Source: Pigmentiphaga sp. NML030171 | GTDB lineage: Bacteria; Pseudomonadota; Gammaproteobacteria; Burkholderiales; Burkholderiaceae_B | Direction of reading: 5' to 3' | DNA: 64,000 nt | NCBI RefSeq assembly: GCF_002188635.1 | Contig: NZ_NINX01000050.1 | Coordinates: 62,001 to 126,000 of the forward strand | Shown here: one piece after another, positions 40,059-55,243 of the stretch | Numbering within the stretch: position 1 is the first letter of the stretch | Layout of the letters: each line of letters opens with the position of its first letter | Position numbers and translations under genes: made by a program | The notes under the pieces: generated by a model | Databases searched by the model: none | Told to the model about the DNA's origin: nothing | What the model saw: only the letters and a program-made list of their open reading frames with translations

Positions 40059-41777
40059 TCAGTCGCTGGCGGGGATGATGGGCAGCGTCAGATAGGACGC
40101 CTGTTCCGGTCCGCTGTACACGGTGGTACGGCCCTGGAAATCCTCGCCGCCGCGATCCGCGGGGTCGGTATGGGTGAGCCGGCCCTTGATGCCTTCGAAT
40201 TCGAAATCCCTGCCTTGTATCGTCAGGCGCAGGCGGTAGCCGCGCGGGATGACGATGGAGGTGGGCCAGATTTCGAGGTCGAGGGGATAGGCGGTACCGG
40301 GTTCGATCTTCTGGACCTCGTCGTGCGCATGGAAGATCCGGTAAGGCATGGACATCTGTTCGTCGACCTTGCGGTGCGAGGCGCGCAGCCATCCCCGGGT
40401 CAGAGGCGTCGGTTCGTGGGCGCCGTCGAAGACGATTTCCTTGCCGTCGGGATCGAAAAGCCGGAGGACGGCGAAGAGGTCGGCATCCCGGGTGGAGGAG
40501 GACACCCAGATGCGCAGCGGGATGAAGCCGGTGATCTCGGTCGTGGCTTCGAAGGGCGGGGTGGTGAAGTCCAGGTGCTCGTGCTGGGCCTGAAAGCCGG
40601 CGCTGGCGGCTTGGGCGGGAGCGGCGGTATCGAGGGTCGCGTTGCCCGGATGCAGGTAGAACCTGGTCCACCGGGTGCGCGCGAGCGGAAACTCGTGTTC
40701 GGCGCGGCGGATTTCGCCCTCTACGGTCCGGATGGACAGCAGGACGGGCGGGGTCTGGTCCCAGCCGTTGGGCAGGCCTTTCAGGAAGTGATCGAAGAAT
40801 TGTTTTTGCAGCGCGATGTAGCGGGGCAGGTAGAAGCTTTCGTAGTGGGTGCCGATGTGCATCGACAGCCATTTCTGCGTGGAGCCGGCACGCAGGTAGC
40901 CTTCGATGTTGCCGCGCAGGTGGTTGCCGGGGCCTCCCCAGTTGCCGGCGGACAGGACGGGGACGGTGATGCGGGAAAGGTCGGGCGTGCGTTCCTTGTG
41001 CCAGGCGTCGCACAAGCCGTGCCGCGCCATTTCCGCGGGATAGTCGCTGCGGTTGGCGGCCAGCAGGGCTGCGCTCAGCGCGGGGCCGGTCGTGGGCTGG
41101 CCGTCGTCGCGGTCGCGATAGGGGGTATCGCCGTTGCCATGCTGGTTGGACAGCACCTGCTTGGGCCACCATGAGTTCAGGAAGCCGTTGCTGCGGATGC
41201 CGCCATGGTAGCCGTAGTCGCGGTAGTGGTCGGACCGGCCCTCCCAGGGCACGATGGCGGCCAGGTGCCTGGGACGCAGCGCGGCGACACGCCATTGGGT
41301 GGCGGCATAGTACGAGATGCCGATCAGGCCGACCTTGCCGTTGCTCCAGGATTGCGTGCCGGCCCACTCGATGGCGTCGCGGTAGTCCTGGATTTCGCGC
41401 GGCGACATGGGGTCGAGGTAGCCCGGCGACTTGCCGCTGCCGCGCGCGTCGACGTGGATGACGACGTAGCCGTCGGGCACCCACCGCTCGGGGTCCACGG
41501 TTTCCCAGCGCAGGTAGCGGCCAGTGGAGCCGTCCTGGCACAGGCCGGGATGCAGGCGCTGCAGTTTCTCCCATTGCGGCTTGAAGCCGTCGGCGAAGTG
41601 GACGTCCTTGCCGTATACCCCCTGGGCCATGACGACAGGGTAGCGCCCCGGTTCGGCGGGGCGGAAAACGTTCGCCTTCAGGACGATGCCGTCGTCCATC
41701 GGGATCTCGACGTCTTTTTCGAAGACGAGGGCATGGGGGGCGGCTCGATGCCGGGCTGGGGTGTTCGGTTCGGTCAC
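40059..41777 (-). CDS. CocE/NonD-family alpha/beta hydrolase (X-Pro peptidase S15-like)
   Basis: This 572-residue hydrolase has an S15-type alpha/beta domain with the nucleophile Ser in GLIGISYYAA and the RGSGKSPG block before it, and a C-terminal jelly-roll domain (STRDADLFAVLRLFDP). Members cleave esters, amides or X-Pro peptides; cocaine esterase CocE is the best-known member. No signal peptide is seen. The start is GTG 41777 with a GGAG ribosome site; the frame upstream runs through the neighbouring Bug gene. It follows that Bug gene on the same strand (22 bases), so the receptor may deliver its substrate or product. Confidence 0.85.
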   Translation of the reverse strand: MTEPNTPARHRAAPHALVFEKDVEIPMDDGIVLKANVFRPAEPGRYPVVMAQGVYGKDVHFADGFKPQWEKLQRLHPGLCQDGSTGRYLRWETVDPERWVPDGYVVIHVDARGSGKSPGYLDPMSPREIQDYRDAIEWAGTQSWSNGKVGLIGISYYAATQWRVAALRPRHLAAIVPWEGRSDHYRDYGYHGGIRSNGFLNSWWPKQVLSNQHGNGDTPYRDRDDGQPTTGPALSAALLAANRSDYPAEMARHGLCDAWHKERTPDLSRITVPVLSAGNWGGPGNHLRGNIEGYLRAGSTQKWLSMHIGTHYESFYLPRYIALQKQFFDHFLKGLPNGWDQTPPVLLSIRTVEGEIRRAEHEFPLARTRWTRFYLHPGNATLDTAAPAQAASAGFQAQHEHLDFTTPPFEATTEITGFIPLRIWVSSSTRDADLFAVLRLFDPDGKEIVFDGAHEPTPLTRGWLRASHRKVDEQMSMPYRIFHAHDEVQKIEPGTAYPLDLEIWPTSIVIPRGYRLRLTIQGRDFEFEGIKGRLTHTDPADRGGEDFQGRTTVYSGPEQASYLTLPIIPASD

Positions 41778-41799
41778 GATCGGGTCTCCGCTTGTGTGG

Positions 41800-42786
41800 C
41801 TATTGTTTTTCGATCCTGGCGGCTTGCATGATGTCGGTGTAGGTCGCGGTTTCCTTGGCGAGGTAGTTCGCCATGTCCTGGGGCGACCCGCCCGCCACGT
41901 CCAGCCCCATGGAGGCAAGGCGCTCCTTGATCGCGGGCGAGGCCAGCGCGTCGTTGAAGGCGCGGTTCAGCTTGGCCACGATCTCGGGCGGCGTGCCCGC
42001 CGGGGCCAGCGCCCCCTGCCAGCCACCCTGGACTTCATAGCCGGCGACGCCGGCTTCCTCCATCGTCGGCACGTCGGGCAATTGCGGGAAACGCGTCGAG
42101 CCGGTCACGGCGATCGCGCGCAGCGTTCCGCTCTTGACCTGTTCGATCGCCGAGACCGGGTTGAGGAAGGCCAGCTTCACTTCGCCGGACATGACCGCAT
42201 TCATGGCGGGGGCGGCGCCCTTGTAGGGGACGTGTACCAGGTGGGTGCCCGCCTTGTAGTTGAAGTACTCGGCGACCAGGTGCATGGTGTTGCCGATGCC
42301 GGCCGAGCCGTAGGGGATGTTGGAGTTGGCCGGCTTGGCGAGCTTGACCAGGTCCTGCACGGTCTTGACCGGCAGGGAGGGCGTGACCACGAGTACCTGG
42401 CCGCGCGTCGATCCCACCAGCACGACGGGGACGAAATCCTTGGCGGTGTCGTAGGGCAGGGACTTGTACAGCAGGGGATTGATGACGTGCGAGCCGGTCG
42501 TGTAGAGCAGGGTATAGCCGTCGGCCGGCGCCTTGGCCACGAGCTCCGACGCGATGATGGAGTTGGCTCCCGCGCGGTTCTCCACGATGACCGCCTGCTT
42601 GAGCCGCTTGCCCATTTCCTGGGCCAGGATGCGCGACACGGTGTCGGGGTTGCCGCCGGGCGAAAAGGGCAGGATCAGCTTGATGGGACGGTCGGGAAAC
42701 GTGTCGCCGCCGGCGGCGGGCGCGGCGATGGTCAGGGCTGCGAGGCAGGCTGTGGAAAGCCCAGCCAGAAAAACCGGGTTCTTCAT
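41800..42786 (-). CDS. Bug/TctC-family periplasmic solute receptor
   Basis: This 328-residue receptor has a signal peptide (MKNPVFLAGLSTACLAALTIAAP) and FPDRPIKLILPFSPGG. The start at 42786 follows GAGGAGGAAC; an earlier frame start lacks one. It is divergent from the hydroxycinnamoyl-CoA lyase-like operon across a 258-base region that holds the CCTTATATAAAGT motif and several TCGATAAA-type sequences. It is cotranscribed with the CocE-like hydrolase. The ligand is unknown. Confidence 0.86.
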   Translation of the reverse strand: MKNPVFLAGLSTACLAALTIAAPAAGGDTFPDRPIKLILPFSPGGNPDTVSRILAQEMGKRLKQAVIVENRAGANSIIASELVAKAPADGYTLLYTTGSHVINPLLYKSLPYDTAKDFVPVVLVGSTRGQVLVVTPSLPVKTVQDLVKLAKPANSNIPYGSAGIGNTMHLVAEYFNYKAGTHLVHVPYKGAAPAMNAVMSGEVKLAFLNPVSAIEQVKSGTLRAIAVTGSTRFPQLPDVPTMEEAGVAGYEVQGGWQGALAPAGTPPEIVAKLNRAFNDALASPAIKERLASMGLDVAGGSPQDMANYLAKETATYTDIMQAARIEKQ

Positions 42787-42976
42787 GATGTGTTCCTCCT
42801 CCATGGCGGTATTCCCGACGGGATCGGGACGCGCCTCTTGTCGTTGTCGTTCAGGCGGTCTGGAAAAAAAATCGATAAAACTCTGAATGAAAATTTTTGT
42901 CGATAAAATTATATGGATAAAAACAATATCGACGATCAAGGAAAACCCCGAGCCATCGCCGGATAAAAGAATGTTT

Positions 42977-43003
42977 CCTTATATAAAGTAATCTTATATA
43001 ATG
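42977..43003 (+). promoter_or_regulatory. Tandem CTTATATAA operator/promoter of the CoA-catabolic operon
   Basis: Two copies of CTTATATAA start at 42978 and 42993, 15 bases apart; the second contains a good -10 box TATAAT at 42997. The 13-mer CCTTATATAAAGT at 42977 recurs once, inverted, at 55231 in the TetR/hydrolase divergent region. It is a likely TetR operator that overlaps the promoter. Confidence 0.6.
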
Positions 43004-43044: not shown

Positions 43045-43887
43045 ATGAGCACCAGCCAGACCGCCGCCCAGTCCAACGACCAATCGCCCGTACTCGTCGA
43101 TTTCGAAGACGGCATCGCATGGGTCACCTTGAACCGGCCCACGAAACGCAACGCCATCAACCCGGGCATCGTCTACAACATGGTCCGGGTGCTGGAGGAA
43201 CTCGAGGCGGACGACCGCTGCAAGGTCCTGGTGCTGACCGGCGCGGGCGACGCGTTCTCGGCCGGCATGGACCTGCGCGAATACTTCCGCGGCACGGACA
43301 ACGATCCCAAGGAACGCATCAAGCTGTATCGCGCCAACGCCCAGTGGCAATGGCGCCAGTTGCGCTTCTACGCCAAGCCCACCATCGCCATGGTCAACGG
43401 CTGGTGCTTCGGCGGCGCCTTCACGCCGCTGGTGTCCTGCGACCTGGCGATCGCCGCCGAGGAAGCGCAGTTCGGGCTCTCCGAGATCAACTGGGGCATC
43501 ATCCCGGCCGGCGTCGTCAGCCGCGCGGTGGCCTCGCTGGTGCGCGAACGCGAAGCCATGTACTACGTGATGACGGGCGAAACCTTCGACGGCCGCCGCG
43601 CCGCGGATATCGGCCTGGTCAACGAGGCCGTGCCGCGCGAGCGCCTGCGCGAGCGGACCCGTCAACTGGCCAAGGTCCTGATGGAAAAGAACCCCACCGT
43701 GCTGCGCACGGCCAAGATCGCCCATCGCATGGCGGCCGAAATGAGCTGGGAGCAGGCGACCGATTACCTGATGGCCAAGGTCGACCAGTCCACCTTCCAC
43801 GATCCCGAGCGCGGCCGCGACAATGCCATGAAGCAATTCCTGGACGAGAAGTCGTTCAAGCCCGGCCTCGGCGCGTATCAGCGCTAA
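43045..43887 (+). CDS. Hydroxycinnamoyl-CoA hydratase/lyase homologue (crotonase family)
   Basis: This 280-residue protein resembles the hydroxycinnamoyl-CoA hydratase-lyase (HCHL) of Pseudomonas fluorescens along its length. HCHL hydrates and then cleaves feruloyl-CoA or 4-coumaroyl-CoA to an aromatic aldehyde and acetyl-CoA. Shared blocks include AMVNGWCFGGAF, FGLSEINWGI and GMKQFLDxKSxKPGLxAY-like C-terminus. Tyr80 and Glu147 match the HCHL residues Y75 and E143, but Tyr239 is replaced by Met243 in DYLMAK. The phenol-binding tyrosine is thus missing, so the substrate may be a different arylpropenoyl-CoA. It heads an operon of CoA ligase, acyl-CoA dehydrogenase and molybdenum hydroxylase genes. 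Confidence 0.8.
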   Translation: MSTSQTAAQSNDQSPVLVDFEDGIAWVTLNRPTKRNAINPGIVYNMVRVLEELEADDRCKVLVLTGAGDAFSAGMDLREYFRGTDNDPKERIKLYRANAQWQWRQLRFYAKPTIAMVNGWCFGGAFTPLVSCDLAIAAEEAQFGLSEINWGIIPAGVVSRAVASLVREREAMYYVMTGETFDGRRAADIGLVNEAVPRERLRERTRQLAKVLMEKNPTVLRTAKIAHRMAAEMSWEQATDYLMAKVDQSTFHDPERGRDNAMKQFLDEKSFKPGLGAYQR

Positions 43888-43908
43888 GACGGCACGAAGG
43901 GGTATCGC

Positions 43909-46029
43909 ATGTCTTCATTCGCTCTGGACCGCCTGCTGCGGCCCAAGTCGATCGCCGTGGTCGGCGCTTCGCCCGAGCCGGGTTCGGTCAGCGGCCTGCT
44001 GTTGGCCAACCTGCAGCGCTTCGGCTATGCCGGGCAACTGCATCTGGTCAGCCGCAGCCGGGACGAAGTCAACGGCATCCGCTGTTTCAAGTCCATCGAC
44101 GAACTGCCGGAAGGCGTGGACGTGGCCGTGCTGGTGGTGCCGCAGGTGGCGGTGGCCGATTCCGTCGCGGCCTGCGGGCGCCGGGGCGTGGGCGCGGCGG
44201 TGGTGTTCGCCTCGGGTTTTGCCGAAATGGGCGACGAAGGCCGGGCCGCGCAGGAGGCCATGGCCGCCATCGCGCACCGCCATGGCGTGGCGGTGCTGGG
44301 GCCCAACTGCCTGGGGTTCATCAATTTCGCGGATGCCGTCCCGCTGACCTTCGAGCCGGTGCAGCCGGCGCCGGTCCGCAGCGGTCCGCGCATAGGCATC
44401 GTGGCCCAGAGCGGCGCGATGAGCGGCAACCTGCGCCAGGCCTTCCTGGGGCGCGGGCTGGGGGTTTCGTTCTCGATCTCGACCGGCAACGAAGCGGTGC
44501 TGGGCGCCGAGGATTTCCTGTCCGCGCTGGTCGATGCGCCCGACGTCGACGCTTTTGCGGTGTTCGTCGAAATGCTGCGCAAGCCCGCCGAATTCCTGCG
44601 CGTGGCGAGCCGCGCGCGCGAGCTGGGCAAGCCCATCGTGCTGATGCACCCGGGCCGCAGCCAGCGCGCCCGCGAGGCGGCCAAGTCGCACACGGGCGCA
44701 TTGGCGGGCGACCACCAGGTCATGCGCACGCTGGTCGAGCGCGAAGGCGTGGTGGTGGTCGACAGCATGGACGAAATGTTCGATGTGACGGCCATCCTGG
44801 CGCGCTACCCGCAGCCCGTGACCGAAGGCCGGGCCGCCGTGGCCTCGAACTCGGGCGCCCTGCGCGGACTGGCGCTGGATTTCTGCGAAGACATCGGCCT
44901 GCAACTGGCCGATTTCCAGCCCGCCACGATGCAGGCCTTGTCGCAGATCCTGCCGGACTTCATGGCGCCCGACAATCCGCTGGACCTGACGGCGATCGGC
45001 ATGCAGAAACCGGAGATCTTCGGGCTGTCGGCGCGGGCCATCCTGGACGATCCCGGCGTGGGGAGCCTGATCATGCCGCTGATGGGCGGCTCGCCCGCGC
45101 AGCAAGTGGCCAAGGCGGATTCACTGTTGCCGGTGATGCAGGCATCGCGCAAGCCGGTGTGCTTCGTCATCATGGGCGACAGCGGCCCGCTGGGCAGCGA
45201 ATTCCTGGAGCGGGTCCATGCGAGCGGCATGCCGTTCCTGCGGTCGCCCGACCGCGCCATGCGTGCCATGGCCCACGTGCACCGCTACGGACGCCTGCAC
45301 GCCGAGGCGGCCGAACGCAGCGGGGCGGAATCCGGCCTGCGCCGCGACGATCTTCAGCCGGGGCCGCTGGCCGAGTTCAAGGGCAAGCAATGGCTGCGCG
45401 AGCTGGGCATCTCCACGCCACGGGGCGGGCTGGCCCGCACGCCGGCCGAAGCCGAGGCGCTGGCGCGCGAGATCGGCTATCCGGTGGTGCTCAAGGCCCA
45501 GGCCGACACGCTCATGCACAAGAGCGACGTGGGCGGCGTGGCGGTCAACCTGCGCGATGCCGCGGCGCTGGGCGATGCGTGGCAGCGCATCCAATCCTCG
45601 GTGGCCCGGCATTGCCCGGATATCGCGCTGGACGGCATGCTGGTCGAGGCCATGTCCAGCCCCGGCCTGGAACTGGTGGTGGGCGGGCGCCGCGATCCCA
45701 ATTGGGGCGTGGTGACGCTGGTGGGGCTGGGCGGGATATGGATCGAGGCCTTGCACGACGTACGCCTTTTGCCGCCCGACCTGACCGAGGCGCAGATCAT
45801 GCGTGAACTGCAGCGCCTGAAGGGCGCCAAACTACTGTCCGGCCTGCGCGGCGCGCCGCCGGTGGACGTGGCGGCGGTCGCGGCCGTGGTGCGGCGCCTG
45901 TCCGCGCTGATGCTGGCCAATCCCGGGATCGCGGAGATCGACATCAATCCGCTGATTGCCTTGCCCGCGGGCAAGGGCGTCGTGGCCCTGGACGCGCTGT
46001 TCGTCATGGACGCGGCGCCGGCGTCCTGA
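43909..46029 (+). CDS. NDP-forming acyl-CoA synthetase (acetate-CoA ligase family)
   Basis: This 706-residue single-chain enzyme forms an acyl-CoA from a carboxylate, CoA and ATP with release of ADP. Domain order is a CoA-binding domain (SIAVVGASPEPGSVSG), a succinyl-CoA-synthetase-like part with the phospho-His motif SHTGALAGDH near residue 260, and a C-terminal ATP-grasp domain (about residues 490-700, with GYPVVLKAQADTLMHKSDVGG). It lies 21 bases after the HCHL homologue, where an activating ligase for an aryl-propanoate would be expected. In most HCHL clusters the ligase is the AMP-forming type, so this is a different solution. Confidence 0.83.
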   Translation: MSSFALDRLLRPKSIAVVGASPEPGSVSGLLLANLQRFGYAGQLHLVSRSRDEVNGIRCFKSIDELPEGVDVAVLVVPQVAVADSVAACGRRGVGAAVVFASGFAEMGDEGRAAQEAMAAIAHRHGVAVLGPNCLGFINFADAVPLTFEPVQPAPVRSGPRIGIVAQSGAMSGNLRQAFLGRGLGVSFSISTGNEAVLGAEDFLSALVDAPDVDAFAVFVEMLRKPAEFLRVASRARELGKPIVLMHPGRSQRAREAAKSHTGALAGDHQVMRTLVEREGVVVVDSMDEMFDVTAILARYPQPVTEGRAAVASNSGALRGLALDFCEDIGLQLADFQPATMQALSQILPDFMAPDNPLDLTAIGMQKPEIFGLSARAILDDPGVGSLIMPLMGGSPAQQVAKADSLLPVMQASRKPVCFVIMGDSGPLGSEFLERVHASGMPFLRSPDRAMRAMAHVHRYGRLHAEAAERSGAESGLRRDDLQPGPLAEFKGKQWLRELGISTPRGGLARTPAEAEALAREIGYPVVLKAQADTLMHKSDVGGVAVNLRDAAALGDAWQRIQSSVARHCPDIALDGMLVEAMSSPGLELVVGGRRDPNWGVVTLVGLGGIWIEALHDVRLLPPDLTEAQIMRELQRLKGAKLLSGLRGAPPVDVAAVAAVVRRLSALMLANPGIAEIDINPLIALPAGKGVVALDALFVMDAAPAS

Positions 46030-46059
46030 GGGCGCCGCGCTTGTACGGAGAGCAATCTT

Positions 46060-47223
46060 ATGTCGTCATTCGATAGCGAGACCTTTCCTCAGTTGATGGA
46101 CTCGGTCGAGCGCTTCATCCGCCAACGCCTGATGCCGCTGGAGCGGCAGGTGGAGGAAAAGGAGGAAGTGCCGCCCGAGGTCATCGAGGAAATGAAGCAA
46201 ATGGGCCTGTTCGGCCTGGGGATTCCCGAGGCCTACGGCGGCTGCGAACTGGACCTGATGCAGGAATTGCAGGTGCAGATGGCCTTCAGCTATACCTCGC
46301 CGGCCTTCCGGCTGGTGTTCTGGCCCAACGTGGGCATAGGCAGCAAGGGCCTGGTGCTGGCCGGTACCGAGGAGCAGAAGCAGAAGTATCTGCCGGGCCT
46401 GGCCAGCGGCGAGCTGCGCGCGGCATTCTGCCTGACCGAACCCGACGCCGGTTCGGACGCGGCCAGCCTGAGGACGCGTGCCGAGCGCGACGGCGACATG
46501 CTGGTCATCAACGGCACCAAGCGCTTCATCACCAACGCCACGCGTGCCCACGTCTTCACCGTCATGGCGCGCACCGACCCGTCCCGTCCGGGCGCGGCCG
46601 GCATCAGCGCCATCCTGGTCGATCGGGATACGCCGGGGCTGCACATAGGCAAGTCCGAGAAGAAGCTGGGCCAGCGCGGCTCGCCCATCAGCGACGTGAT
46701 CTTCGAGAACGTGCGGGTGCCGGTATCCAACGTGATAGGCGGGGAGCCCGCGCTGGGGCAGGGGTTCAGGACCGCCATGCAGGTGCTGGATCACGGCCGC
46801 ATCAGCGTGGCGGCCTCGGGGCTAGGCATGGCGCGCCGGTTGATCGACGAGGCGGCGCGCTACGCCCTGCAGCGCAAGCAGTTCGGCCAGCCCATCTCCG
46901 AATTCCAGCTGGTGCAAGCCATGCTGGCCGATTCCGAAACCGAATACCTGGCCGGACACGCGCTGGTGATGCAGGCGGGCCAGGCCCTGGCGCGCGGAGA
47001 AGACGTGCGCAACCAGGCGGCGGCCGCCAAGTATTTCTGCTCGGAGGCGCTTTCGCGCATCGCCGACCGGGCCCTGCAGATCCACGGTGGCTCGGGCTAC
47101 GTGGCCGATCACCACGTCGAACGCCTGTACCGCGATGCCCGGGCGCTGCGCATCTACGAAGGCACCTCCCAGGTCCTGCAACTGGTCATCGCCCGTACGA
47201 TGCTCAAGCGCTACCAGGATTGA
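46060..47223 (+). CDS. Acyl-CoA dehydrogenase
   Basis: This 387-residue FAD enzyme should introduce an alpha,beta double bond into an acyl-CoA. The FAD/substrate block is AFCLTEPDAGSDAASL, and the catalytic Glu lies in RIYEGTSQVLQLVIA near the C-terminus, the position used by medium- and short-chain enzymes. It is the third gene of the HCHL operon. Coupled with the ligase and the lyase it could turn an aryl-propanoyl-CoA into an aryl-propenoyl-CoA for cleavage. That coupling is inference. Confidence 0.88.
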   Translation: MSSFDSETFPQLMDSVERFIRQRLMPLERQVEEKEEVPPEVIEEMKQMGLFGLGIPEAYGGCELDLMQELQVQMAFSYTSPAFRLVFWPNVGIGSKGLVLAGTEEQKQKYLPGLASGELRAAFCLTEPDAGSDAASLRTRAERDGDMLVINGTKRFITNATRAHVFTVMARTDPSRPGAAGISAILVDRDTPGLHIGKSEKKLGQRGSPISDVIFENVRVPVSNVIGGEPALGQGFRTAMQVLDHGRISVAASGLGMARRLIDEAARYALQRKQFGQPISEFQLVQAMLADSETEYLAGHALVMQAGQALARGEDVRNQAAAAKYFCSEALSRIADRALQIHGGSGYVADHHVERLYRDARALRIYEGTSQVLQLVIARTMLKRYQD

Positions 47224-47227
47224 GCGC

Positions 47228-47251
47228 CATTTTCGACACTTATCGAAAATG
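47228..47251. promoter_or_regulatory. Inverted repeat after the acyl-CoA dehydrogenase gene
   Basis: CATTTTCGA-CACTTA-TCGAAAATG is a perfect dyad with 9-base arms, four bases after the stop codon. Only a weak T-rich stretch follows, so it may be an operator for the downstream molybdenum hydroxylase genes or an inefficient terminator. Confidence 0.5.
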
Positions 47252-47364
47252 TTTGTGAGGCCATCGCAAACCCGTGTTTCAGCCTTTGCGGTGTTTCTTC
47301 TACAGTTAGCGGGGATCAGGCGGCGCGGCATGTCGCGGCCGCCCACGATAATGACGGAGACGAT

Positions 47365-48156
47365 GTGTACCCCCTGAGCTATGTGCGTCCGGCCACCTTG
47401 CAGGAAGCGCTGGACTGCCTGGCCCGCGAGCCCGAAGCCCGCCCCCTGTCGGGCGGCATGACCCTGGTGCCCACGCTCAAGCAGCGGCTGGCGGCGCCTT
47501 CGCACCTGGTTGACCTGACGCGCCTGCCGGAGCTGCAAGGCATCTCGCGCGACGGCGACATGCTGAAAATCGGTGCCGCCACGCGCCATGTACACGTGGC
47601 CGAATCGGCCCTGGTGGGCGAGACCATTCCGGGCCTGGCGGCCCTGGCCGGCCTGATCGCCGATCCGCAGGTGCGCAACCGCGGCACCATGGGCGGATCG
47701 GTGGCCAACAACGATCCCTCCGCCGACTATCCGGCCGCCGTGCTGGGGCTGGGGGCGACCGTGGTCAGCAGCGGCCGGCGCATCGCCGCCGACGATTTCT
47801 TTACCGGCATGTTCGAGACCGCGCTGGTCCCGGGCGAGATCATCGTGGGCTTCGAGTTTCCCATTCCTCGCCGCAGCGCTTATGCCAAGTATCGCCACAA
47901 GGCCACGGGCTACGCGGTAACGGGCGTGTTCATCGCCGATACCGCGCAGGGCGTGCGGGTGGCGGTGACCGGGGCCGGGCCCTGTGTTTTCCGCTGGCAC
48001 GAGGCGGAGGCGGCGCTGGCCGGCGGCGACGCCGGGGCGCTGGCCACGGTTCCCCTGGATGCCGATGAACTGAACGACGACCGCGCGGGCAGCGCCGCCT
48101 ATCGCGCCAACCTGGTGAGGGTGATGGCGCGGCGCGCCTGGGCGCAATTATCTTGA
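47365..48156 (+). CDS. Molybdenum hydroxylase FAD subunit (CoxM-type)
   Basis: This 263-residue subunit binds FAD and passes electrons from the molybdenum site of a xanthine-dehydrogenase-family hydroxylase. FAD-binding motifs are ARPLSGGMTLVPTLKQR near the N-terminus and NRGTMGGSVANNDPSAD in the centre. The start is GTG with GGAG upstream. CoxG-, CoxS- and CoxL-type genes follow, in the order M-G-S-L. The substrate of the complex is discussed under the large subunit. Confidence 0.88.
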   Translation: MYPLSYVRPATLQEALDCLAREPEARPLSGGMTLVPTLKQRLAAPSHLVDLTRLPELQGISRDGDMLKIGAATRHVHVAESALVGETIPGLAALAGLIADPQVRNRGTMGGSVANNDPSADYPAAVLGLGATVVSSGRRIAADDFFTGMFETALVPGEIIVGFEFPIPRRSAYAKYRHKATGYAVTGVFIADTAQGVRVAVTGAGPCVFRWHEAEAALAGGDAGALATVPLDADELNDDRAGSAAYRANLVRVMARRAWAQLS

Positions 48157-48199
48157 ATCGCGGACGGCCCGGAGCGAGGCCGAGCAAGGTGGAGAAGTC

Positions 48200-48651
48200 A
48201 TGGAACTGAAAGGATCGCATACGTTGCGGGCGCCCCGCGAACGGGTATGGGAATACCTGAACACCCCGGAAATCCTGCAGGCATGCGTGCCCGGCTGCGA
48301 ATCGTTCACCGCCGGAGCGGCGCAGGACGAGTACGCCGCCGTGGTGGTGGCCGCCATCGGCCCGGTGAAGGCGCGCTTCAAGGGGACCCTGAGCATCGCG
48401 GACAAGCGCCCGCCGCAGGGCTATCGCATCGTCGGCCAGGGCGACGGCGGCATCGCCGGCTTCGGGAAAATGGTGGCCGATGTCGAGCTGGCCGAAGACG
48501 GGGAGGGCACGGTGCTGACCTACGTGGCGCAGGCCCAGGTCGGCGGCAAGCTCGCGCAGATAGGCGCGCGGCTGGTGGGCTCGGTCGCCAACAAGATGGC
48601 GGCCGAGTTCTTCGAACGCTTCAGCGCCAAGGTGGAAGAGAAGGTCGCGCC

Positions 48652-48655
<4 letters not shown>
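48200..48655 (+). CDS. CoxG/SRPBCC family protein
   Basis: This 151-residue START-like (SRPBCC) protein is of the CoxG type (GSHTLRAPRERVWEYLNTPE, then VPGCESF). In CO-oxidising bacteria CoxG is thought to help recruit the enzyme to the membrane, but related genes accompany many other molybdenum hydroxylases. It is placed between the FAD and the iron-sulfur subunit and overlaps the latter by ATGA. No hydrophobic anchor is visible. Confidence 0.85.
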
Positions 48656-49141
<486 letters not shown>

Positions 49142-49149
<8 letters not shown>

Positions 49150-51502
49150 CCGATTGGTCGGCCAGCCGCGCCCGCGCGCCGAAGACCAGCGGCTGGTGCG
49201 GGGCCAGGGCCGCTATACCGACGACGTGAATCTGCCCGGCCAGGCCTACGGCGCATTCGTGCGGTCCACGCATGCCCATGCCATCATCCGCGGCATCGAC
49301 ATCGAGGCGGCGGCGCAGGCGCCCGGGGTGATCGCCGTGCTGCGCGGCCAGGATTACCTGGATGACGGCCTGCGCGGCATGGACCACATTCCCAATCCCG
49401 CCGATGCCATTGCCTTCAAGGAGCGCGCCTTCCAGCATTCGCTGACCGGCAGCATTTTCAATCAGCGGCATCTGCCCTTGGTGGTGGATCGCGTGCGCCA
49501 CGTCGGCGAGCCGGTGGTGCTGGTGGTGGCCCGCAGCATGCGCGAGGCGCGCGATGCCTGCGAAATGGTGCAGATCGACTATGAGCCCTTGCCCGCCGTG
49601 GTGGACGCGGTGCAGGCAATGGAAGACGGGGCGCCGCAATTGTGGGACGGCGCCCCGCGCAATCTGTGCTTCCAGGCCCGGGTGGGCGATGAGGCCGCGG
49701 TGCGCGAAGCCTTTGCCCGCGCCCATTGCGTCGTGCGCCGGGAATTTCGCAACAGCCGCGTCGTCAATTGCCAGATGGAGCCGCGCTCGGCGCTGGGCAG
49801 CTTCGACGCCAGTTCCGGCGAATACCTGCTGATCTCGGGTAGCCAGGGCGTGACGCGCCAGCAGATGTGCATCGCCGATGCATTGGGGATATCCCCGGCG
49901 AAATTGCGGGTGGTGTCGCCTGACGTGGGCGGCGGCTTCGGTCCGCGCAGTTGCGTGAATCCCGATCAGCTTGCGGTGCTGTGGGCCGCGCGCCGCGTCG
50001 GGCAACCGGTGAAATGGACCAGCGACCGCAACGAGGCCTTCCTGTCCGACTACCAGGGGCGCGACCAGGTCATACGGGCGGCCATCGCATTCGATGCGCA
50101 AGGACGCATCCTGGGCATAGACAACGAGATCATCGGCAATATCGGCGCCCATACCGTGTCGTATGTGCCGCTGGCCAACGGCTCGCGCATCATGACCACG
50201 GTCTACCACGTGCCCGCGGCCACGGCGCTGCTGTCCGCGGTGCTCACGAACACGCCGCCAACCGGTCCTTATCGGGGCGCGGGCCGTCCGGAAGCCACGC
50301 ATGTGATGGAACGCATGCTGGATATCGCCGCCGACGAGATGGGCATGGACCGCATCGAACTGCGCCGGCGCAATCTCATCCAGCCGGCGCAGATGCCGTA
50401 TCGCAGTCCCATGGGGCTGACCTACGACAGCGGCAGCTTCGCCGCCAACATGGAGCGGGCCCTGGTGGTATCGCAGTGGAGCGAGGCGGAGCAGCGCAAG
50501 CGCGATGCGCGCGCGCGCGGCAAATTGCTGGGCACGGGGCTGGCCAATTATGTGGAGTCGCCGGTGGGCGCGCCGCGCGAGCGCATCGAGATCACCATAG
50601 GCACCGACGGCAGTGTCGACTTCGTGGTCGGCACGCAAAGCACGGGGCAAGGACACGAGACCAGCTTCGTCCAGGTGCTGGCCGACGAGCTGGGCGTGCC
50701 GTTCGAGGCCGTGACCATGCGCACCGGCGATTCACGCTTCGTCAAGGTGGGCGGCGGTTCGCATTCGGACCGTTCCATGCGCCTGGTGGGCCACCTGCTG
50801 GTGCAGGCCGGCGAGCGCCTGCGGTCCACGGCGCTGTCGGCCGCGGCATCGATGTGGGGCCTCCAGGTGCAGGACCTGTGCTACGAGGACGGCCGGGTGC
50901 GCGACCAGGCCGGGCAGCATGTGGCTGGCCTGGGCGAGATCGCGGCCCATATCGGGCGCGAAGGCATGCCCGGCAATCCGGAAGAGCGCCGTTTTTTCGC
51001 CGAGGCCGAGTTCAACGGCCGCATCGCCGCCCATCCCACGGGCACGGCGGTGTGCGAACTGGAGATCGATCCCGAGACCGGCGACGTGGAGATCGTGCGC
51101 TATACGTCCATCGACGACGTCGGACGCCCGATCAATCCGCTCATCGTCGAAGGCCAGGTGCATGGCGGCCTGGCGCAAGGCATAGGGCAGGCCTTTTTCG
51201 AGGACTACCATGTCGATCCGGAAAGCGGACAGATCTTCAGCGGTTCGTACATGGACTACGGCGTGGCGCGCGCGGGGGCGATTCCGCGGCGCTTCGACGT
51301 GGAGCTGACCGAAGACCGCACCCACGGCAACGCGCTGGGGGTGAAAGGCGGCGGAGAGAGCGGCATCACGCCTGCCACGGCCGCCATTTTCAACGCGCTG
51401 GCCGATGCGCTGCGCGGCATCACGCGCGAGGAACTGCCCATGCCGGCCACGCCCGCCGCGATCTGGTCGGCCATACAACGCGCACAAGGAGTACAGCCAT
51501 GA
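49142..51502 (+). CDS. Molybdenum hydroxylase large subunit (xanthine dehydrogenase family)
   Basis: This 786-residue subunit binds the molybdopterin cofactor. The active-site loop reads GPYRGAGRPEA; the form-I CO dehydrogenase loop AYRCSFR with its Cys is absent, so CO is not the likely substrate. The C-terminal motif GVKGGGESGITPA supplies the catalytic Glu of the family. Aldehydes or N-heterocycles are the usual substrates. In this operon an aromatic aldehyde made by the HCHL homologue would be a fitting one; that is inference. The start is the ATG that overlaps the CoxS-type gene. Confidence 0.87.
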
Positions 51503-52233
51503 GCGAGCCGGTATCGGTACGCAGCCATTCGGGCCTGCTGGATATCGTGTTGAACACCCCCGAGAACGGCAATCTCATGAGCGCAGAGATGGGCCGGCTG
51601 ATCATCGATGCCGTCTCCAACCTGGACGAGCAGGTCCGTTTGATCCGCCTGTCGGGCGAGGGCGAGGATTTCTGCGCCGGGCGGGTCTCGCCCATGCCCA
51701 GGCCGGGCTCGACGCCGACCGGCGAGGCTCTGCGGCGCAATGTGGCGATGCCGGCGCTCGCGCTGTACGACGCGCTCAAGACGGCGCCGGTGCCGGTGCT
51801 GTCCGTCGTGCATGGCAAGGCCTATGGCGTCGGCTGCGCCCTGGCGGGCGTGTGCGACATCACGCTGGCCGCGGAAGACGCGAGCTTCCAGATTCCCGAG
51901 ATGGAGCGCGACATTCCTCCTGCCCTGGTGATGTCGGCGCTGATCGGCCGGGTGCCGATGAAGACGATCGCGCGCATGGTGCTGACGCGGGACCTGGTGG
52001 GCGCCCGCGAGGCCTGGCAGGCCGGTTTGGCCAGCGAGGTCGTCCCGCGCGCCGAGCTGCGGTCGCGGGCCGACCGCATCGCGGCCACGATCCTGGAGTG
52101 CAGCCCGGTCACGGTGCGCGCGGTCAAGCAATTCATGGAGCTGGCGCCGGGACTGCCGGTAGGCACCTCCAGCAGCCTCGCCGGGCACCTGTCCGGCACC
52201 GCGCTATCGGCCAAGTTCGAGCGCCCGGCGTGA
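51499..52233 (+). CDS. Enoyl-CoA hydratase/isomerase family protein
   Basis: This 244-residue crotonase-fold protein has the oxyanion block VVHGKAYGVGCALAGVCDI, while the usual hydratase glutamates are not clearly present in FQIPEMERDIPPAL. An isomerase, lyase or decarboxylase is therefore possible. It overlaps the molybdenum hydroxylase gene by ATGA, so it belongs to the same operon. It is not a duplicate of the HCHL homologue at 43045; the sequences differ strongly outside the fold. Confidence 0.8.
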   Translation: MSEPVSVRSHSGLLDIVLNTPENGNLMSAEMGRLIIDAVSNLDEQVRLIRLSGEGEDFCAGRVSPMPRPGSTPTGEALRRNVAMPALALYDALKTAPVPVLSVVHGKAYGVGCALAGVCDITLAAEDASFQIPEMERDIPPALVMSALIGRVPMKTIARMVLTRDLVGAREAWQAGLASEVVPRAELRSRADRIAATILECSPVTVRAVKQFMELAPGLPVGTSSSLAGHLSGTALSAKFERPA

Positions 52234-52262
52234 CGACACGCTTTCGAGAGGAGACGACATCG

Positions 52263-53225
52263 ATGAAGAAGTGCCTTGCCGCGTTTGCCGCGATCACCCT
52301 GATGGCCGGCGCGCCGGCCCTGGCCGCCGACTACCCCGTGCGGCCCGTACGCATGTTGCTGGGATATCCCGCCGGCAGCGGCATCGACAATGTGGCGCGC
52401 CAGGTGGCTGCGGGATTGGAAAAGGAGCTCGGCCAGCCGGTGGTGGTGGAAAACAAGGCCGGCGCGCTCGGCAACCTGGCCGCCGACTTCGTGGCCAAGG
52501 CGCCTGCCGACGGCTACACCATCCTGTTCACGCCGAACTCCACCCATGCGGCCAACGTCCATTTGTTCAAGAAGCTGCCCTTCGATCCCATCAAGGATTT
52601 CGCGCCGGTGGGCACGGTGGCCAGCCTGGGGTTCGTCCTGCTGGTGGCGCCCGAACACACCAAGGTCGACAACGTCGCGCAGTTGACCAAGATGCTCAAG
52701 GATCAGCCCGGCAAGTATTCGTGGGGCAGCGGCAACGCCACGGGACAGGTGGCGGGAGAACTCTACAAGACACTGGCCGGCGTCGATGCCGTCAACGTGC
52801 CTTACAAGGGCGTGCCGCCGGCCATGACCGACCTGATCGGGGGGCGGGTGAGTTTCCTGTTTGCCGACGCGACGCTGGCCATTCCCCAGCTCAAGGGGGG
52901 CCGCGTGAAGGCGCTGGCGGTGACGGGCAGCAAGCGGCCCACGTCGTTGCCCGATGTGCCCACCATGGCCGAAGCCGGGGTGCAAGGCTACGACCTGGGG
53001 GGATGGTTCGGCATCTTTCTGCCCGCCAATCCGCCCGAGTCCGTGCGCAAGACGCTGAGCGCCGCGTTGCTCAAGGTCACCGGCAGCCCCGAGATGGCCC
53101 GCTTTCTGCGTGGCATCGGCGCCGAACCCCTGAGTGGAGGGCCGGACGATCTCGCGCGGGTGGTGGCGGTCGATACCGAGAAGTGGGGGCGCATTATCCG
53201 CGCCGCGGGCATGACCGTCGAATGA
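52263..53225 (+). CDS. Bug/TctC-family periplasmic solute receptor
   Basis: This 320-residue receptor starts MKKCLAAFAAITLMAGAPALA, a clear signal peptide, followed by YPVRPVRMLLGYPAGSGID. The opening is unusual, because the family PFxxGG block is replaced by GYPAGSG, so the ligand pocket entrance may differ. GAGAGGAG precedes the ATG. It is 29 bases after the crotonase gene and 21 before the SDR gene, well inside the CoA operon, and probably captures the operon substrate. Confidence 0.86.
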   Translation: MKKCLAAFAAITLMAGAPALAADYPVRPVRMLLGYPAGSGIDNVARQVAAGLEKELGQPVVVENKAGALGNLAADFVAKAPADGYTILFTPNSTHAANVHLFKKLPFDPIKDFAPVGTVASLGFVLLVAPEHTKVDNVAQLTKMLKDQPGKYSWGSGNATGQVAGELYKTLAGVDAVNVPYKGVPPAMTDLIGGRVSFLFADATLAIPQLKGGRVKALAVTGSKRPTSLPDVPTMAEAGVQGYDLGGWFGIFLPANPPESVRKTLSAALLKVTGSPEMARFLRGIGAEPLSGGPDDLARVVAVDTEKWGRIIRAAGMTVE

Positions 53226-53246
53226 CGGGCAACGGACGGGGCAAAC

Positions 53247-53978
53247 ATGCGAAGTCTTGAGGATCGCGTCGCGATCGTGACCGGCGCCAGTTCCGGCATA
53301 GGCCGGGCCGTGGCGGTGGCGTTCGGCCAGGCCGGCGCGCGCGTGGTGCTGGCCGCCCGCAGCCGGGATGCCTTGGACGAGACGGCACGGATGGTACGCG
53401 AGGCGGGCGGCGAGGCGCTCGCCTGCGTCACCGATGTCGGCCGTGAGGAAGACGTGGCGCGATTGTTCGGCGCGGCGCTTGCCGCCCATGGCCGCGTGGA
53501 CGTGCTGGTCAACAACGCCGGCGTCACCACCAGTCAGCCTATCGAGGACATGAGCCTGGACACCTGGCGCAGCGTCCTCGATGTGAACCTGACCGGTGCT
53601 TTCCTTTGCAGCCGCGAGGCCTTTCGGGTCATGAAGCCGCGGCGCCAGGGACGCATCATCAACATTGGCAGCGTGGCGGCCAAGGTGCCGAGGCCGGACT
53701 CGGTGCCGTACACGACGACCAAGCACGGCTTGTCCGGCATGACCCATGCGCTGGCGCTGGACGGACGGGCGCACGGCATCGCGGTCAGCGTGCTGCATCC
53801 CGGCGTGACCGAGTCGGCGCTGGCCGCCAAGTCCGGCCGCAAGTTCGAACCCGGCGAGTTGATGAAGGCCGAGGACGTGGCCCGCGTCGTGCTGCTGATG
53901 GCCAGCCTGCCGCCCGAAGTGAATTTTTACGAAGGCACGATGTTTCCGCTGTCCATGCCTTTGCTGGGTAGGGGCTAA
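53247..53978 (+). CDS. Short-chain dehydrogenase/reductase
   Basis: This 243-residue NAD(P)-dependent oxidoreductase has the cofactor motif VTGASSGIGRA, the NNAG motif in LVNNAGVTT, and the active-site YTTTKHG with Ser in IINIGSVAAK. Classical SDRs of this type include 3-oxoacyl reductases and alcohol dehydrogenases. It is the last catabolic gene of the operon that starts with the HCHL homologue. The substrate is not readable. Confidence 0.88.
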   Translation: MRSLEDRVAIVTGASSGIGRAVAVAFGQAGARVVLAARSRDALDETARMVREAGGEALACVTDVGREEDVARLFGAALAAHGRVDVLVNNAGVTTSQPIEDMSLDTWRSVLDVNLTGAFLCSREAFRVMKPRRQGRIINIGSVAAKVPRPDSVPYTTTKHGLSGMTHALALDGRAHGIAVSVLHPGVTESALAAKSGRKFEPGELMKAEDVARVVLLMASLPPEVNFYEGTMFPLSMPLLGRG

Positions 53979-53989
53979 AATCCCGAGGC

Positions 53990-54391
53990 ATGAACGCCTC
54001 GTTTCCCATCCGCAAGGAATGCCCGCCCGGCGCCTGTATCTGCGAACGCGACCATTTGCTGGCCGACCCGCAGGGCGATAGGCGCATTCTTCTTTTGACC
54101 AAGGAAGAAGAGAAGCGGCTGGTGGCTCGCCTCGAGGCCCTGGCCTCCCTGGAGGACCTGATGGCGATGCAGGCGCGCATGCATGCGCAACTGGGTATCG
54201 TGCTGCATATCGAGCCCAGCGCCAACGAAGTCCGTACGGTGCGCGGTATCGCCATCGAACTGGCGGAACAGCGGGGCTTGTGCCGCAAGACGCGTGAGGC
54301 CATTCCCGCCGCGATCCGCCGCTGCTTCGAACGCACGCCCGGGATCGTCTACGCCTTGCTCGATTCGCGCGACCTGTTGGGAGGGGCGTAG
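53990..54391 (+). CDS. Hypothetical protein with N-terminal cysteine cluster
   Basis: I do not recognise this 133-residue protein. It begins MNASFPIRKECPPGACICERD; three cysteines in CPPGACIC lie close together, and a later pair occurs at LCRKTR and RRCFER, which could form a metal site. The middle is charged and helical (LTKEEEKRLVARLEALASLEDL). It starts 11 bases after the SDR gene on the same strand and converges on the TetR gene. The coding frame has normal codon use for the window. The role is unknown. Confidence 0.65.
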   Translation: MNASFPIRKECPPGACICERDHLLADPQGDRRILLLTKEEEKRLVARLEALASLEDLMAMQARMHAQLGIVLHIEPSANEVRTVRGIAIELAEQRGLCRKTREAIPAAIRRCFERTPGIVYALLDSRDLLGGA

Positions 54392-55119: not shown

Positions 55120-55230
55120 GAAAGAGCAGGACGCGAAGGAATGAGGGGCGGCGGGGCCGGGCCGCCTATTCTAGAAGAACTCGGCAGGCCTCCCGCGCGA
55201 TGATGCAAGATTCTCTTGATAAGTAAAGAA

Positions 55231-55243
55231 ACTTTATATAAGG
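55231..55243. promoter_or_regulatory. Candidate TetR operator, shared with 42977 site
   Basis: ACTTTATATAAGG is a near-perfect palindrome, identical in reverse complement to 42977-42989. It lies in an AT-rich gap between the TetR gene and the hydrolase gene. A possible -10 (TATTAT) follows at 55247. Confidence 0.6.

What the first reader, a model, noticed from the sequence alone, without database searches (positions are those of the whole stretch)
43045..53978. Unusual CoA-dependent arylpropanoid-type operon with a molybdenum hydroxylase
The operon joins an HCHL homologue, an NDP-forming acyl-CoA ligase, an acyl-CoA dehydrogenase, CoxM/G/S/L-type genes, a second crotonase, a Bug receptor and an SDR. 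A coherent route would be import, CoA activation, desaturation, cleavage to an aldehyde plus acetyl-CoA, then oxidation of the aldehyde by the molybdenum enzyme instead of an NAD-dependent vanillin dehydrogenase. I do not know a described pathway with this set. It is the best candidate for an undescribed system in the window.
Basis: inference. Interest (0 to 1): 0.85.

Follow-up and report, generated by a model that had tools for sequence, protein, structure and literature searches.

The report
Arylpropanoid operon with joined molybdenum module
A soil bacterium (Pigmentiphaga) carries a gene set that probably trims the side chain of plant-derived aromatic acids, joined to a molybdenum enzyme that recurs in other bacteria with an uncharacterised crotonase-type partner; the first half is known chemistry, the second half points to an aromatic-degradation step whose reaction is still unknown.

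Summary
The ten genes are real, collinear and at the stated place. The host is a Pigmentiphaga close to P. kullae. The first half (NDP-forming CoA ligase, acyl-CoA dehydrogenase, hydroxycinnamoyl-CoA hydratase-lyase) is a FerA/FerB-type arylpropanoid module that groups with alphaproteobacterial genes in a tree. The catalytic Glu is kept, but the residue matching Tyr239 of the Pseudomonas enzyme is Met, so the exact acid is open. The second half (CoxM-G-S-L plus the second crotonase, 'ECH2') is a separable module: CoxL-ECH2 pairs co-diverge and recur in Alpha- and Betaproteobacteria, also in stretches without CoA ligase or hydratase-lyase, beside UbiD decarboxylases and ring monooxygenases; many related CoxL genes, however, have no ECH2. 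The idea that the molybdenum enzyme replaces vanillin dehydrogenase is possible but not shown: Vdh-type genes stand in 1 of 12 CoxL-bearing against 23 of 43 other HCHL loci, but the contrast is not significant within ligase-matched loci (1 of 12 against 4 of 16), and P. litoralis keeps another aldehyde dehydrogenase in the same operon. A promoter palindrome with a weaker copy at a TetR gene 12 kb away suggests the regulator. New variant of a known kind.

The parts
42979..43000 (.). operator-like inverted repeat TTATATAAAG-N4-CTTATATA in the HCHL promoter
   Evidence: 0 mismatches, 0.00 expected in 100 shuffles of the window; the only exact match in the 5.86 Mb genome; present with 0-1 mismatches at the HCHL promoter of L009-L014, L129, L130, L189 (L013 and L129 are one genome)
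43045..43887 (+). hydroxycinnamoyl-CoA hydratase-lyase type crotonase (HCHL)
   Evidence: NF006588 429.6 bits, cut-off 276; PDB 6p5u, 6l3o, 2j5i best; Met/Tyr/Thr/Glu/Met at the places of 70/75/123/143/239
43909..46029 (+). NDP-forming acyl-CoA ligase, FerA/ACD type
   Evidence: PF13380+PF13607+PF13549; motif SHTGALAG with His261; 4-hydroxybutyrate-CoA ligase (ADP-forming) nearest in PDB
46060..47223 (+). acyl-CoA dehydrogenase
   Evidence: three Acyl-CoA_dh domains, YEGTSQ with Glu367; caffeyl-CoA reductase CarC fourth among PDB hits
47365..48156 (+). CoxM-type FAD subunit (GTG start)
   Evidence: PF00941, PF03450
48200..48655 (+). CoxG-type membrane anchor
   Evidence: PF06240 117.8 bits; anchoring role from PMC11962113 (passages)
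48652..49149 (+). CoxS-type 2x[2Fe-2S] subunit
   Evidence: PF00111, PF01799
49142..51502 (+). CoxL-type molybdopterin subunit, not CO dehydrogenase (loop GPYRGAGRPE)
   Evidence: PF02738, PF20256, PF01315 (on 49103-51499); below every NCBIfam cut-off listed; motif alignment
51499..52233 (+). ECH2: small crotonase of a CoxL-linked subfamily (F-C-x-G-R invariant in alignment A1)
   Evidence: PF00378 109 bits; alignments; co-divergence with CoxL
52263..53225 (+). Bug/TctC solute receptor
   Evidence: PF03401 213 bits
53247..53978 (+). short-chain dehydrogenase/reductase; 51-55% identical SDRs stand in five HCHL-NDP-ligase loci
   Evidence: PF00106; L018, L021, L023, L025, L027
53990..54391 (+). 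133-aa ORF, last gene of the run, no Pfam match
   Evidence: absent from the P. litoralis locus L129
54427..55119 (-). TetR-family regulator, probable repressor of the operon (inferred)
   Evidence: PF00440 43.3 bits, cut-off 24
55220..55241 (.). related, weaker operator-like site in front of TetR / alpha-beta hydrolase
   Evidence: 3 mismatches; 2-3 mismatches at the matching place in L129, L130, L131, L189
58363..59547 (-). FAD ring monooxygenase (3-hydroxybenzoate 6-hydroxylase-like), possible later step of the same pathway
   Evidence: PF01494; NF006021 314 bits, cut-off 459; 51-63% identical copies in L018, L141, L194, L196, L037 and a 71% match over 225 aa in L195

Best explanation
A catabolic operon joined from two modules, probably repressed by the TetR protein encoded about 12 kb downstream. 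Module A (ligase, ACAD, HCHL; families shown, reactions inferred) activates a 3-arylpropanoate or arylpropenoate to its CoA ester, desaturates the side chain if needed, then hydrates and cleaves it to acetyl-CoA and an aromatic aldehyde. Module B (CoxM-G-S-L and ECH2) oxidises a later aromatic intermediate: the Mo enzyme puts an oxygen on a ring or carbonyl carbon and passes electrons on at the membrane, where CoxG holds it; ECH2 acts on that product (hydrolysis or C-C cleavage; inferred), and an FAD ring monooxygenase such as 58363-59547 prepares ring opening. Bug is the uptake receptor (inferred); the SDR belongs with module A's alphaproteobacterial relatives. Most likely the Mo step is not simply the vanillin-dehydrogenase step.
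For: Module A: families and residues. The HCHL tree (75 rows) puts the seven Pigmentiphaga-type rows in a 29-row set with support 98/92; of the other 22 rows one (L017) is betaproteobacterial, two (L027) are unclassified and the rest are alphaproteobacterial (root by midpoint only). Same SDR type in L018, L021, L023, L025, L027. Module B as a unit: CoxL and ECH2 overlap or lie within 11 bp in the window, P. litoralis, G542, Paraburkholderia, Rhizobium RU36D, Pararhodobacter, Aminobacter, Sagittula stellata, N. petrolearium, N. galegae; 15 pairs co-diverge, r=0.75, 0 of 5000 permutations as high; 8 of 11 ECH2 places in 330 genomes of the order have CoxL within 10 kb, 7 of 10 without the window's own. 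Stretches with B but no HCHL or ligase: L124, L141, L195, L196. FAD monooxygenase kin in L141, L195, L196 and in HCHL clusters. Operator.
Against: No substrate or product is shown. The link is one-sided: ECH2 mostly has CoxL near it, but CoxL of about 36-51% identity often has no ECH2: 0 of 9 stretches L142-L150, 0 of 4 L125-L128, 0 of 3 L186-L188, and none in the HCHL loci L026, L037, L065, nor L083 (28% CoxL) (weak generic crotonase matches not counted). Profile A1 was built from copies chosen beside CoxL. In the 55 HCHL loci the FAD monooxygenase is not linked with CoxL (3 of 12 against 5 of 43, p=0.35), though in Pigmentiphaga it lies beyond the flank. No CoxM or CoxS in L183, L184, L194, L196, L197 (Aminobacter undecided, contig end). 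N. petrolearium and N. galegae carry HCHL elsewhere on the same plasmid. The 141-bp gap could mean two transcripts. Vdh-type ALDH is under-represented in CoxL loci overall. The TetR-side site has 3 mismatches, and the reversed control gave 3 matches of that strength in the genome against 9.
Confidence: 0.5

Rival explanations
1. One reading: CoxMGSL is a membrane-linked aromatic aldehyde oxidase that takes the place of NAD-dependent vanillin dehydrogenase right after HCHL.
For: Vdh-type ALDH in 1 of 12 CoxL loci against 23 of 43 others, p=0.007; best NCBIfam models for CoxL and CoxM are glyceraldehyde dehydrogenase alpha and beta, both below cut-off; no close ortholog of the P. litoralis ALDH in the window's genome, best of 26 hits 55%; in L026 CoxL stands directly before HCHL-ligase-ACAD and a Rieske protein (VanA-like, label recalled) without ALDH; KT2440 vanillin oxidation needs the molybdate transporter (PMC7545826, passage).
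Against: 1 of 12 against 4 of 16 within NDP-ligase loci, p=0.36; SSADH-like ALDH stays with CoxL in P. litoralis and in L021, L023, L025, L027; SAGV5 (L009) has both CoxL and a Vdh-type ALDH; module B in stretches without HCHL; does not explain ECH2; L026 CoxL is only 37% identical.
Confidence: 0.3
2. CoxMGSL-ECH2 works like furoyl-CoA dehydrogenase HmfABC with HmfE: the Mo enzyme hydroxylates a CoA thioester and ECH2 releases or opens it.
For: Same kinds of parts: Mo-dependent three-subunit dehydrogenase, CoA ligase, and a protein proposed to act on the CoA product (PMC6678421, passages; that HmfE is crotonase-like is recalled).
Against: No NDP-type CoA ligase in the 20-34 kb read around the module in G542, Paraburkholderia, N. 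petrolearium and G166b; other ligase types were only looked for by eye or annotation; no HmfA or HmfE sequence was at hand.
Confidence: 0.1
3. Two unrelated operons that merely touch: HCHL-ligase-ACAD, and CoxMGSL-ECH2-Bug-SDR on its own promoter after the 141-bp gap.
For: 141-bp gap with a block that by eye is shared by the seven relatives printed; module B occurs alone elsewhere.
Against: Kept together in every Pigmentiphaga locus read that is not cut, although P. litoralis is only 66-82% identical; CoxL near HCHL in 6 of 22 non-Pigmentiphaga NDP loci and 0 of 27 others, p=0.005, though six such host genomes hold 2 to 16 CoxL-like genes.
Confidence: 0.1

Closest known systems
FerA/FerB ferulate pathway of Sphingobium SYK-6 type and LigMet FerA_B3/FerB_B11
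   Same: NDP-forming acyl-CoA ligase and an HCHL; the two purified LigMet enzymes turn ferulate into vanillin (PMC5863372, passages).
   Different: Pigmentiphaga adds ACAD, Mo hydroxylase, ECH2, Bug and SDR; residue 239 is Met; the nearby regulator is TetR, where fer has the MarR-type FerC.
Acinetobacter ADP1 hca operon (recalled; paper not held)
   Same: ligase, acyl-CoA dehydrogenase and hydratase-lyase give access to dihydrocinnamates.
   Different: hca has an AMP-forming ligase and an NAD-dependent aldehyde dehydrogenase; no Mo enzyme.
Furoyl-CoA pathway hmfABCDE
   Same: Mo-dependent dehydrogenase of three subunits, a CoA ligase and a small downstream enzyme (PMC6678421, passages).
   Different: ligase type (recalled), presence of HCHL, ACAD and CoxG; homology of ECH2 with HmfE untested.
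Flavonoid clusters fde (Herbaspirillum) and ifc (Variovorax)
   Same: HCHL clusters such as L018 and L025 also hold an FAD monooxygenase, a glyoxalase-fold protein and an alpha/beta hydrolase, classes that ifc has too (PMC11069340, passages).
   Different: IfcA/FdeE sequences were not compared; in the window's genome glyoxalase and that hydrolase lie on other contigs.
Aerobic CO dehydrogenase (CoxMSL, CoxG)
   Same: subunit make-up and CoxG.
   Different: CODH loop absent and score far below cut-off.

Membership tests
Hydroxycinnamoyl-CoA hydratase-lyase | profile score above the curated cut-off | tested here: met
   NF006588 429.6 bits against 276
Hydroxycinnamoyl-CoA hydratase-lyase | catalytic Glu143 and substrate residues Ser123, Tyr75, Tyr239 (roles recalled) | tested here: inconclusive
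   Glu and Tyr75 kept; Ser123 is Thr and Tyr239 is Met in all 9 Pigmentiphaga-type rows (8 genomes); 6p5u, a hydratase/aldolase from a lignin consortium, also has Thr and a non-Tyr
FerA-type NDP-forming feruloyl-CoA ligase | ACD domain architecture with phospho-His motif | tested here: met
FerA-type NDP-forming feruloyl-CoA ligase | activity on ferulate | not testable with these tools
   needs an assay
CO dehydrogenase form I | NCBIfam cut-off and Cys-bearing active-site loop (motif recalled) | tested here: not met
   421 bits against 991; loop reads GPYRGAGRPE
Xanthine-oxidase-family Mo hydroxylase | MoCoBD domains, 2x[2Fe-2S] and FAD subunits, C-terminal catalytic Glu (role recalled) | tested here: met
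   GVKGGGES motif
Aromatic aldehyde oxidase replacing vanillin dehydrogenase | mutual exclusion with Vdh-type ALDH near HCHL | tested here: inconclusive
   p=0.007 overall, p=0.36 within NDP loci; all ALDHs pooled p=0.19
Furoyl-CoA dehydrogenase HmfABC/HmfE | sequence kinship with HmfA and HmfE | not tested
   no Hmf sequence at hand
fde/ifc flavonoid cluster | FdeE/IfcA and FdeC/IfcB orthologs in the cluster | tested here: inconclusive
   same protein classes near HCHL in some loci; orthology not tested; the glyoxalase family also stands in unrelated places

The most novel reading that the evidence does not exclude
CoxL-ECH2 is an undescribed catalytic couple of aromatic catabolism: a membrane-linked Mo hydroxylase of one CoxL subgroup whose product is handed to a dedicated crotonase with a changed loop (FCxGR), a ring-oxidation step used by several pathways and joined in Pigmentiphaga to CoA-dependent side-chain cleavage.
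Probability: 0.35. Interest if true: 0.65.

Novelty: new variant of a known kind. Interest (0 to 1): 0.47.

Why it matters
If true, a set of Mo hydroxylases that databases call 'xanthine dehydrogenase family' would gain a partner enzyme and a place in the breakdown of plant phenolics, including in Sagittula stellata E-37. It would also show how a side-chain module and a ring module can be joined. The operon is compact and named relatives such as P. kullae and P. litoralis exist, so the question 'what does the Mo enzyme oxidise' can be tested directly.

Tried and rejected
Rejected or weak: CO dehydrogenase (loop and score). A molybdenum-cofactor riboswitch before CoxM: the Rfam scan of 40000-61000 gave one sub-threshold match, elsewhere. 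Sigma-70 promoters and terminators: about as many as in shuffles. 'CoxL and ALDH exclude each other': with all ALDHs pooled p=0.19; only after splitting Vdh-type from SSADH-like did a contrast appear, and I made that split. The glyoxalase protein of P. litoralis as a flavonoid marker: near relatives stand beside unrelated genes in other Burkholderiales. ECH2 model: mean pLDDT 74.5 from 6 sequences, residues 216-229 and 235-244 under 50; Foldseek ranks many crotonases alike, so no function was read from it. Papers: of the ten searches I saw listings only, 5 to 20 titles each, and opened passages of eight papers; none of the listings or passages describes HCHL with a Mo hydroxylase or CoxL with ECH2. 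This covers only the held open library. Two papers were not held.

Dropped rows: 24 of 79 loci under 20 kb were left out of the contingency counts. The HCHL alignment has 79 rows; 9 of the 79 loci have no row because the home-made gene caller missed their HCHL. The tree has 75 rows: two near copies (L129_18, L130_9) and two short rows (L062_1, L066_1) were left out. The gene caller also gave few or no genes on L125-L128, L147, L148 and L199; counts there rest on tblastn. Lower-identity CoxL hits in other genera of the family were followed only in L125-L128.

Full report
OBSERVATION. The ten genes are present, all on the + strand, at the stated coordinates. CoxG/CoxS, CoxS/CoxL and CoxL/ECH2 overlap by 4, 8 and 4 bp; the other gaps are 21-43 bp except 141 bp between ACAD and CoxM. 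The contig belongs to a 5.86 Mb genome (G000); the nearest named relatives for this locus are P. kullae, Alcaligenaceae bacterium SAGV5 and Burkholderiales bacterium 67-32 (98-99% HCHL identity).

CONSERVATION. Of 79 HCHL-bearing loci fetched (106 relatives found, best 80 kept), six are Pigmentiphaga-type and carry the operon; in four of them all ten genes are seen within the flank, the SDR cut by the end. P. humi has no SDR there. In the genus 9 of 11 genomes have this HCHL and 10 of 11 the CoxL.

MODULE A. The HCHL passes its curated cut-off and is 52% identical to a second HCHL of the same genome that sits with an ALDH, a CaiB-type transferase (label from the sequence) and a Bug receptor. 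The residue matching Glu143 is Glu in every one of the 79 rows; Ser123 is Thr and Tyr239 is Met in all nine Pigmentiphaga-type rows (eight genomes), while the Pseudomonas rows have Ser and Tyr. A hydratase/aldolase of the same Thr, non-Tyr kind from a lignin consortium has a solved structure (6p5u), and a FerA/FerB pair of a lignin consortium makes vanillin from ferulate (PMC5863372, passages); that 6p5u is that FerB is my inference. So ferulate-like substrates are possible, but para-OH recognition by Tyr239 (role recalled) is absent. The ligase is of the NDP-forming type with its phospho-His motif. The tree puts the Pigmentiphaga-type HCHLs in a 29-row set (support 98/92) that is otherwise alphaproteobacterial except for one betaproteobacterial bin and two unclassified rows; transfer from Alphaproteobacteria is an inference, since the root is a midpoint.

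MODULE B. CoxL is a xanthine-oxidase-family Mo subunit without the CO dehydrogenase loop. ECH2 is a small crotonase; in an alignment of 12 copies F58, C59, G61, R62, P133 and E134 are invariant. CoxL and ECH2 stand together in Aminobacter, Pararhodobacter, Rhizobium RU36D and on a Sagittula stellata E-37 plasmid, about 4, 9, 11 and 15 kb from the nearest HCHL gene. The Sagittula stretch holds HCHL, two NDP-type ligases (50 and 49% to the window's), two acyl-CoA dehydrogenases and an FAD monooxygenase. Without HCHL or NDP ligase in the stretch read the pair occurs in G542, Paraburkholderia (VOC-fumarylacetoacetase-hydrolase-CoxM-hypothetical at the CoxG place-CoxS-CoxL-ECH2-UbiD), Neorhizobium petrolearium (UbiD-CoxL-ECH2-FAD monooxygenase; the plasmid has HCHL elsewhere) and a second G166 cluster with UbiD, cupin and FAA hydrolases, where ECH2 is divergent from CoxM. 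Fifteen CoxL/ECH2 pairs co-diverge (r=0.75, 0 of 5000 permutations; related copies were not thinned). In a sample of 330 genomes of the order ECH2 occurs at 11 places in 10 genomes and CoxL lies within 10 kb of 8 (in G210 and G463 on the other strand and 6-7 kb away); in 329 genomes of the phylum only the window's genome was found. The converse fails: of 10 CoxL stretches taken from the order (L141-L150) only L141 has ECH2, and L125-L128 and L186-L188 have none. So ECH2 belongs to a part of the CoxL family only. The window's genome holds a second, divergent CoxM-S-L-hydrolase-ECH2-CoxG set.

ALDEHYDE STEP. Of 55 loci of at least 20 kb, CoxL is present in 12 of 28 with an NDP ligase and 0 of 27 without (p=1e-4; 6 of 22 against 0 of 27 without Pigmentiphaga, p=0.005). 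Six host genomes hold 2 to 16 CoxL-like genes, so part of this may be background. Vdh-type ALDH: 1 of 12 CoxL loci, 23 of 43 others (p=0.007), but 1 of 12 against 4 of 16 within NDP loci (p=0.36). The ALDH of P. litoralis is nearest to succinate-semialdehyde dehydrogenase models, below cut-off; those of L018, L021, L023, L025 and L027 are 51-57% identical to it but were not run against NCBIfam. SAGV5 has a Vdh-type ALDH 3.4 kb upstream of HCHL (60% to the Pseudomonas one). The window's genome has 26 ALDH hits, best 55% to the P. litoralis one. So the Mo-for-Vdh idea is neither shown nor excluded.

LATER STEPS. An FAD monooxygenase (58363-59547) has 61, 63, 54, 54 and 51% identical copies in L018, L141, Sagittula, N. 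petrolearium and L037, 42% in L017, and a 71% match over 225 aa in Paraburkholderia, where two hypothetical genes are annotated. In the 55 HCHL loci it is not significantly linked with CoxL (3 of 12 against 5 of 43, p=0.35) and only weakly with the NDP ligase (7 of 28 against 1 of 27, p=0.05). It resembles 3-hydroxybenzoate 6-hydroxylase, below the cut-off. This fits a route by way of a hydroxybenzoate to a hydroquinone-type ring, but also ring hydroxylation of a heterocycle; a CoxG homologue has been proposed as anchor of a 3-hydroxypyridine dehydrogenase (PMC11962113, passages).

REGULATION. The HCHL promoter holds TTATATAAAG-N4-CTTATATA, the only exact match in the genome, with 0-1 mismatches in all nine Pigmentiphaga-type promoter stretches read (L013 and L129 are one genome). 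A weaker copy lies in front of the TetR gene at 55220-55241, at the matching place in four relatives. At up to 3 mismatches the genome has 9 matches against 3 for the reversed control, so the TetR-side site rests on its conservation. TetR control is an inference.

VERDICT. Known chemistry in module A, an uncharacterised Mo-hydroxylase/crotonase couple of part of the CoxL family in module B, joined in one genus. New variant of a known kind.

Noticed in passing
G000:C12:320852-321682 (L123): A second HCHL (52% identical, residues QFVEL at the five active-site places) lies between an aldehyde dehydrogenase and a CaiB-type CoA transferase with a Bug receptor.
   Followed up: partly
G000:C34:117600-123800 (L198): A second, divergent CoxM-CoxS-CoxL-hydrolase-ECH2-CoxG set in the same genome.
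   Followed up: partly
window 53990-54391 (+): 133-aa ORF with a CPPGACIC motif near its start, no Pfam match; kin at the same place in L014, L130 and L131, none in P. litoralis L129.
   Followed up: no
window 47230-47249: Perfect palindrome TTTTCGA-N6-TCGAAAA in the gap between ACAD and CoxM, kept or nearly kept in L009, L010, L011 and L130, lost in L012, L014 and L131.
   Followed up: partly
window 11088-13705: Homogentisate 1,2-dioxygenase and fumarylacetoacetase pair, both above NCBIfam cut-offs.
   Followed up: no
window 40059-42804 (-): CocE/NonD-family hydrolase and Bug receptor divergent from the operon; in SAGV5 (L009) the Bug is kept but the CocE gene is replaced by a ThDP-type enzyme (label recalled), a Vdh-type ALDH and another Bug.
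   Followed up: partly
L194 (Sagittula stellata E-37 plasmid, NZ_CP155730.1): A stretch of about 26 kb with two NDP-type ligases, HCHL, two acyl-CoA dehydrogenases, two GMC oxidoreductases, FAD monooxygenase, CoxL-ECH2 and a TRAP transporter.
   Followed up: partly
L188, L037: CoxL without CoxM, CoxS or ECH2 beside a MetE-like protein, glyoxalase-fold protein, FAA hydrolase and HCHL-ligase-ACAD in Beijerinckiaceae and Rhizobiales bins.
   Followed up: no
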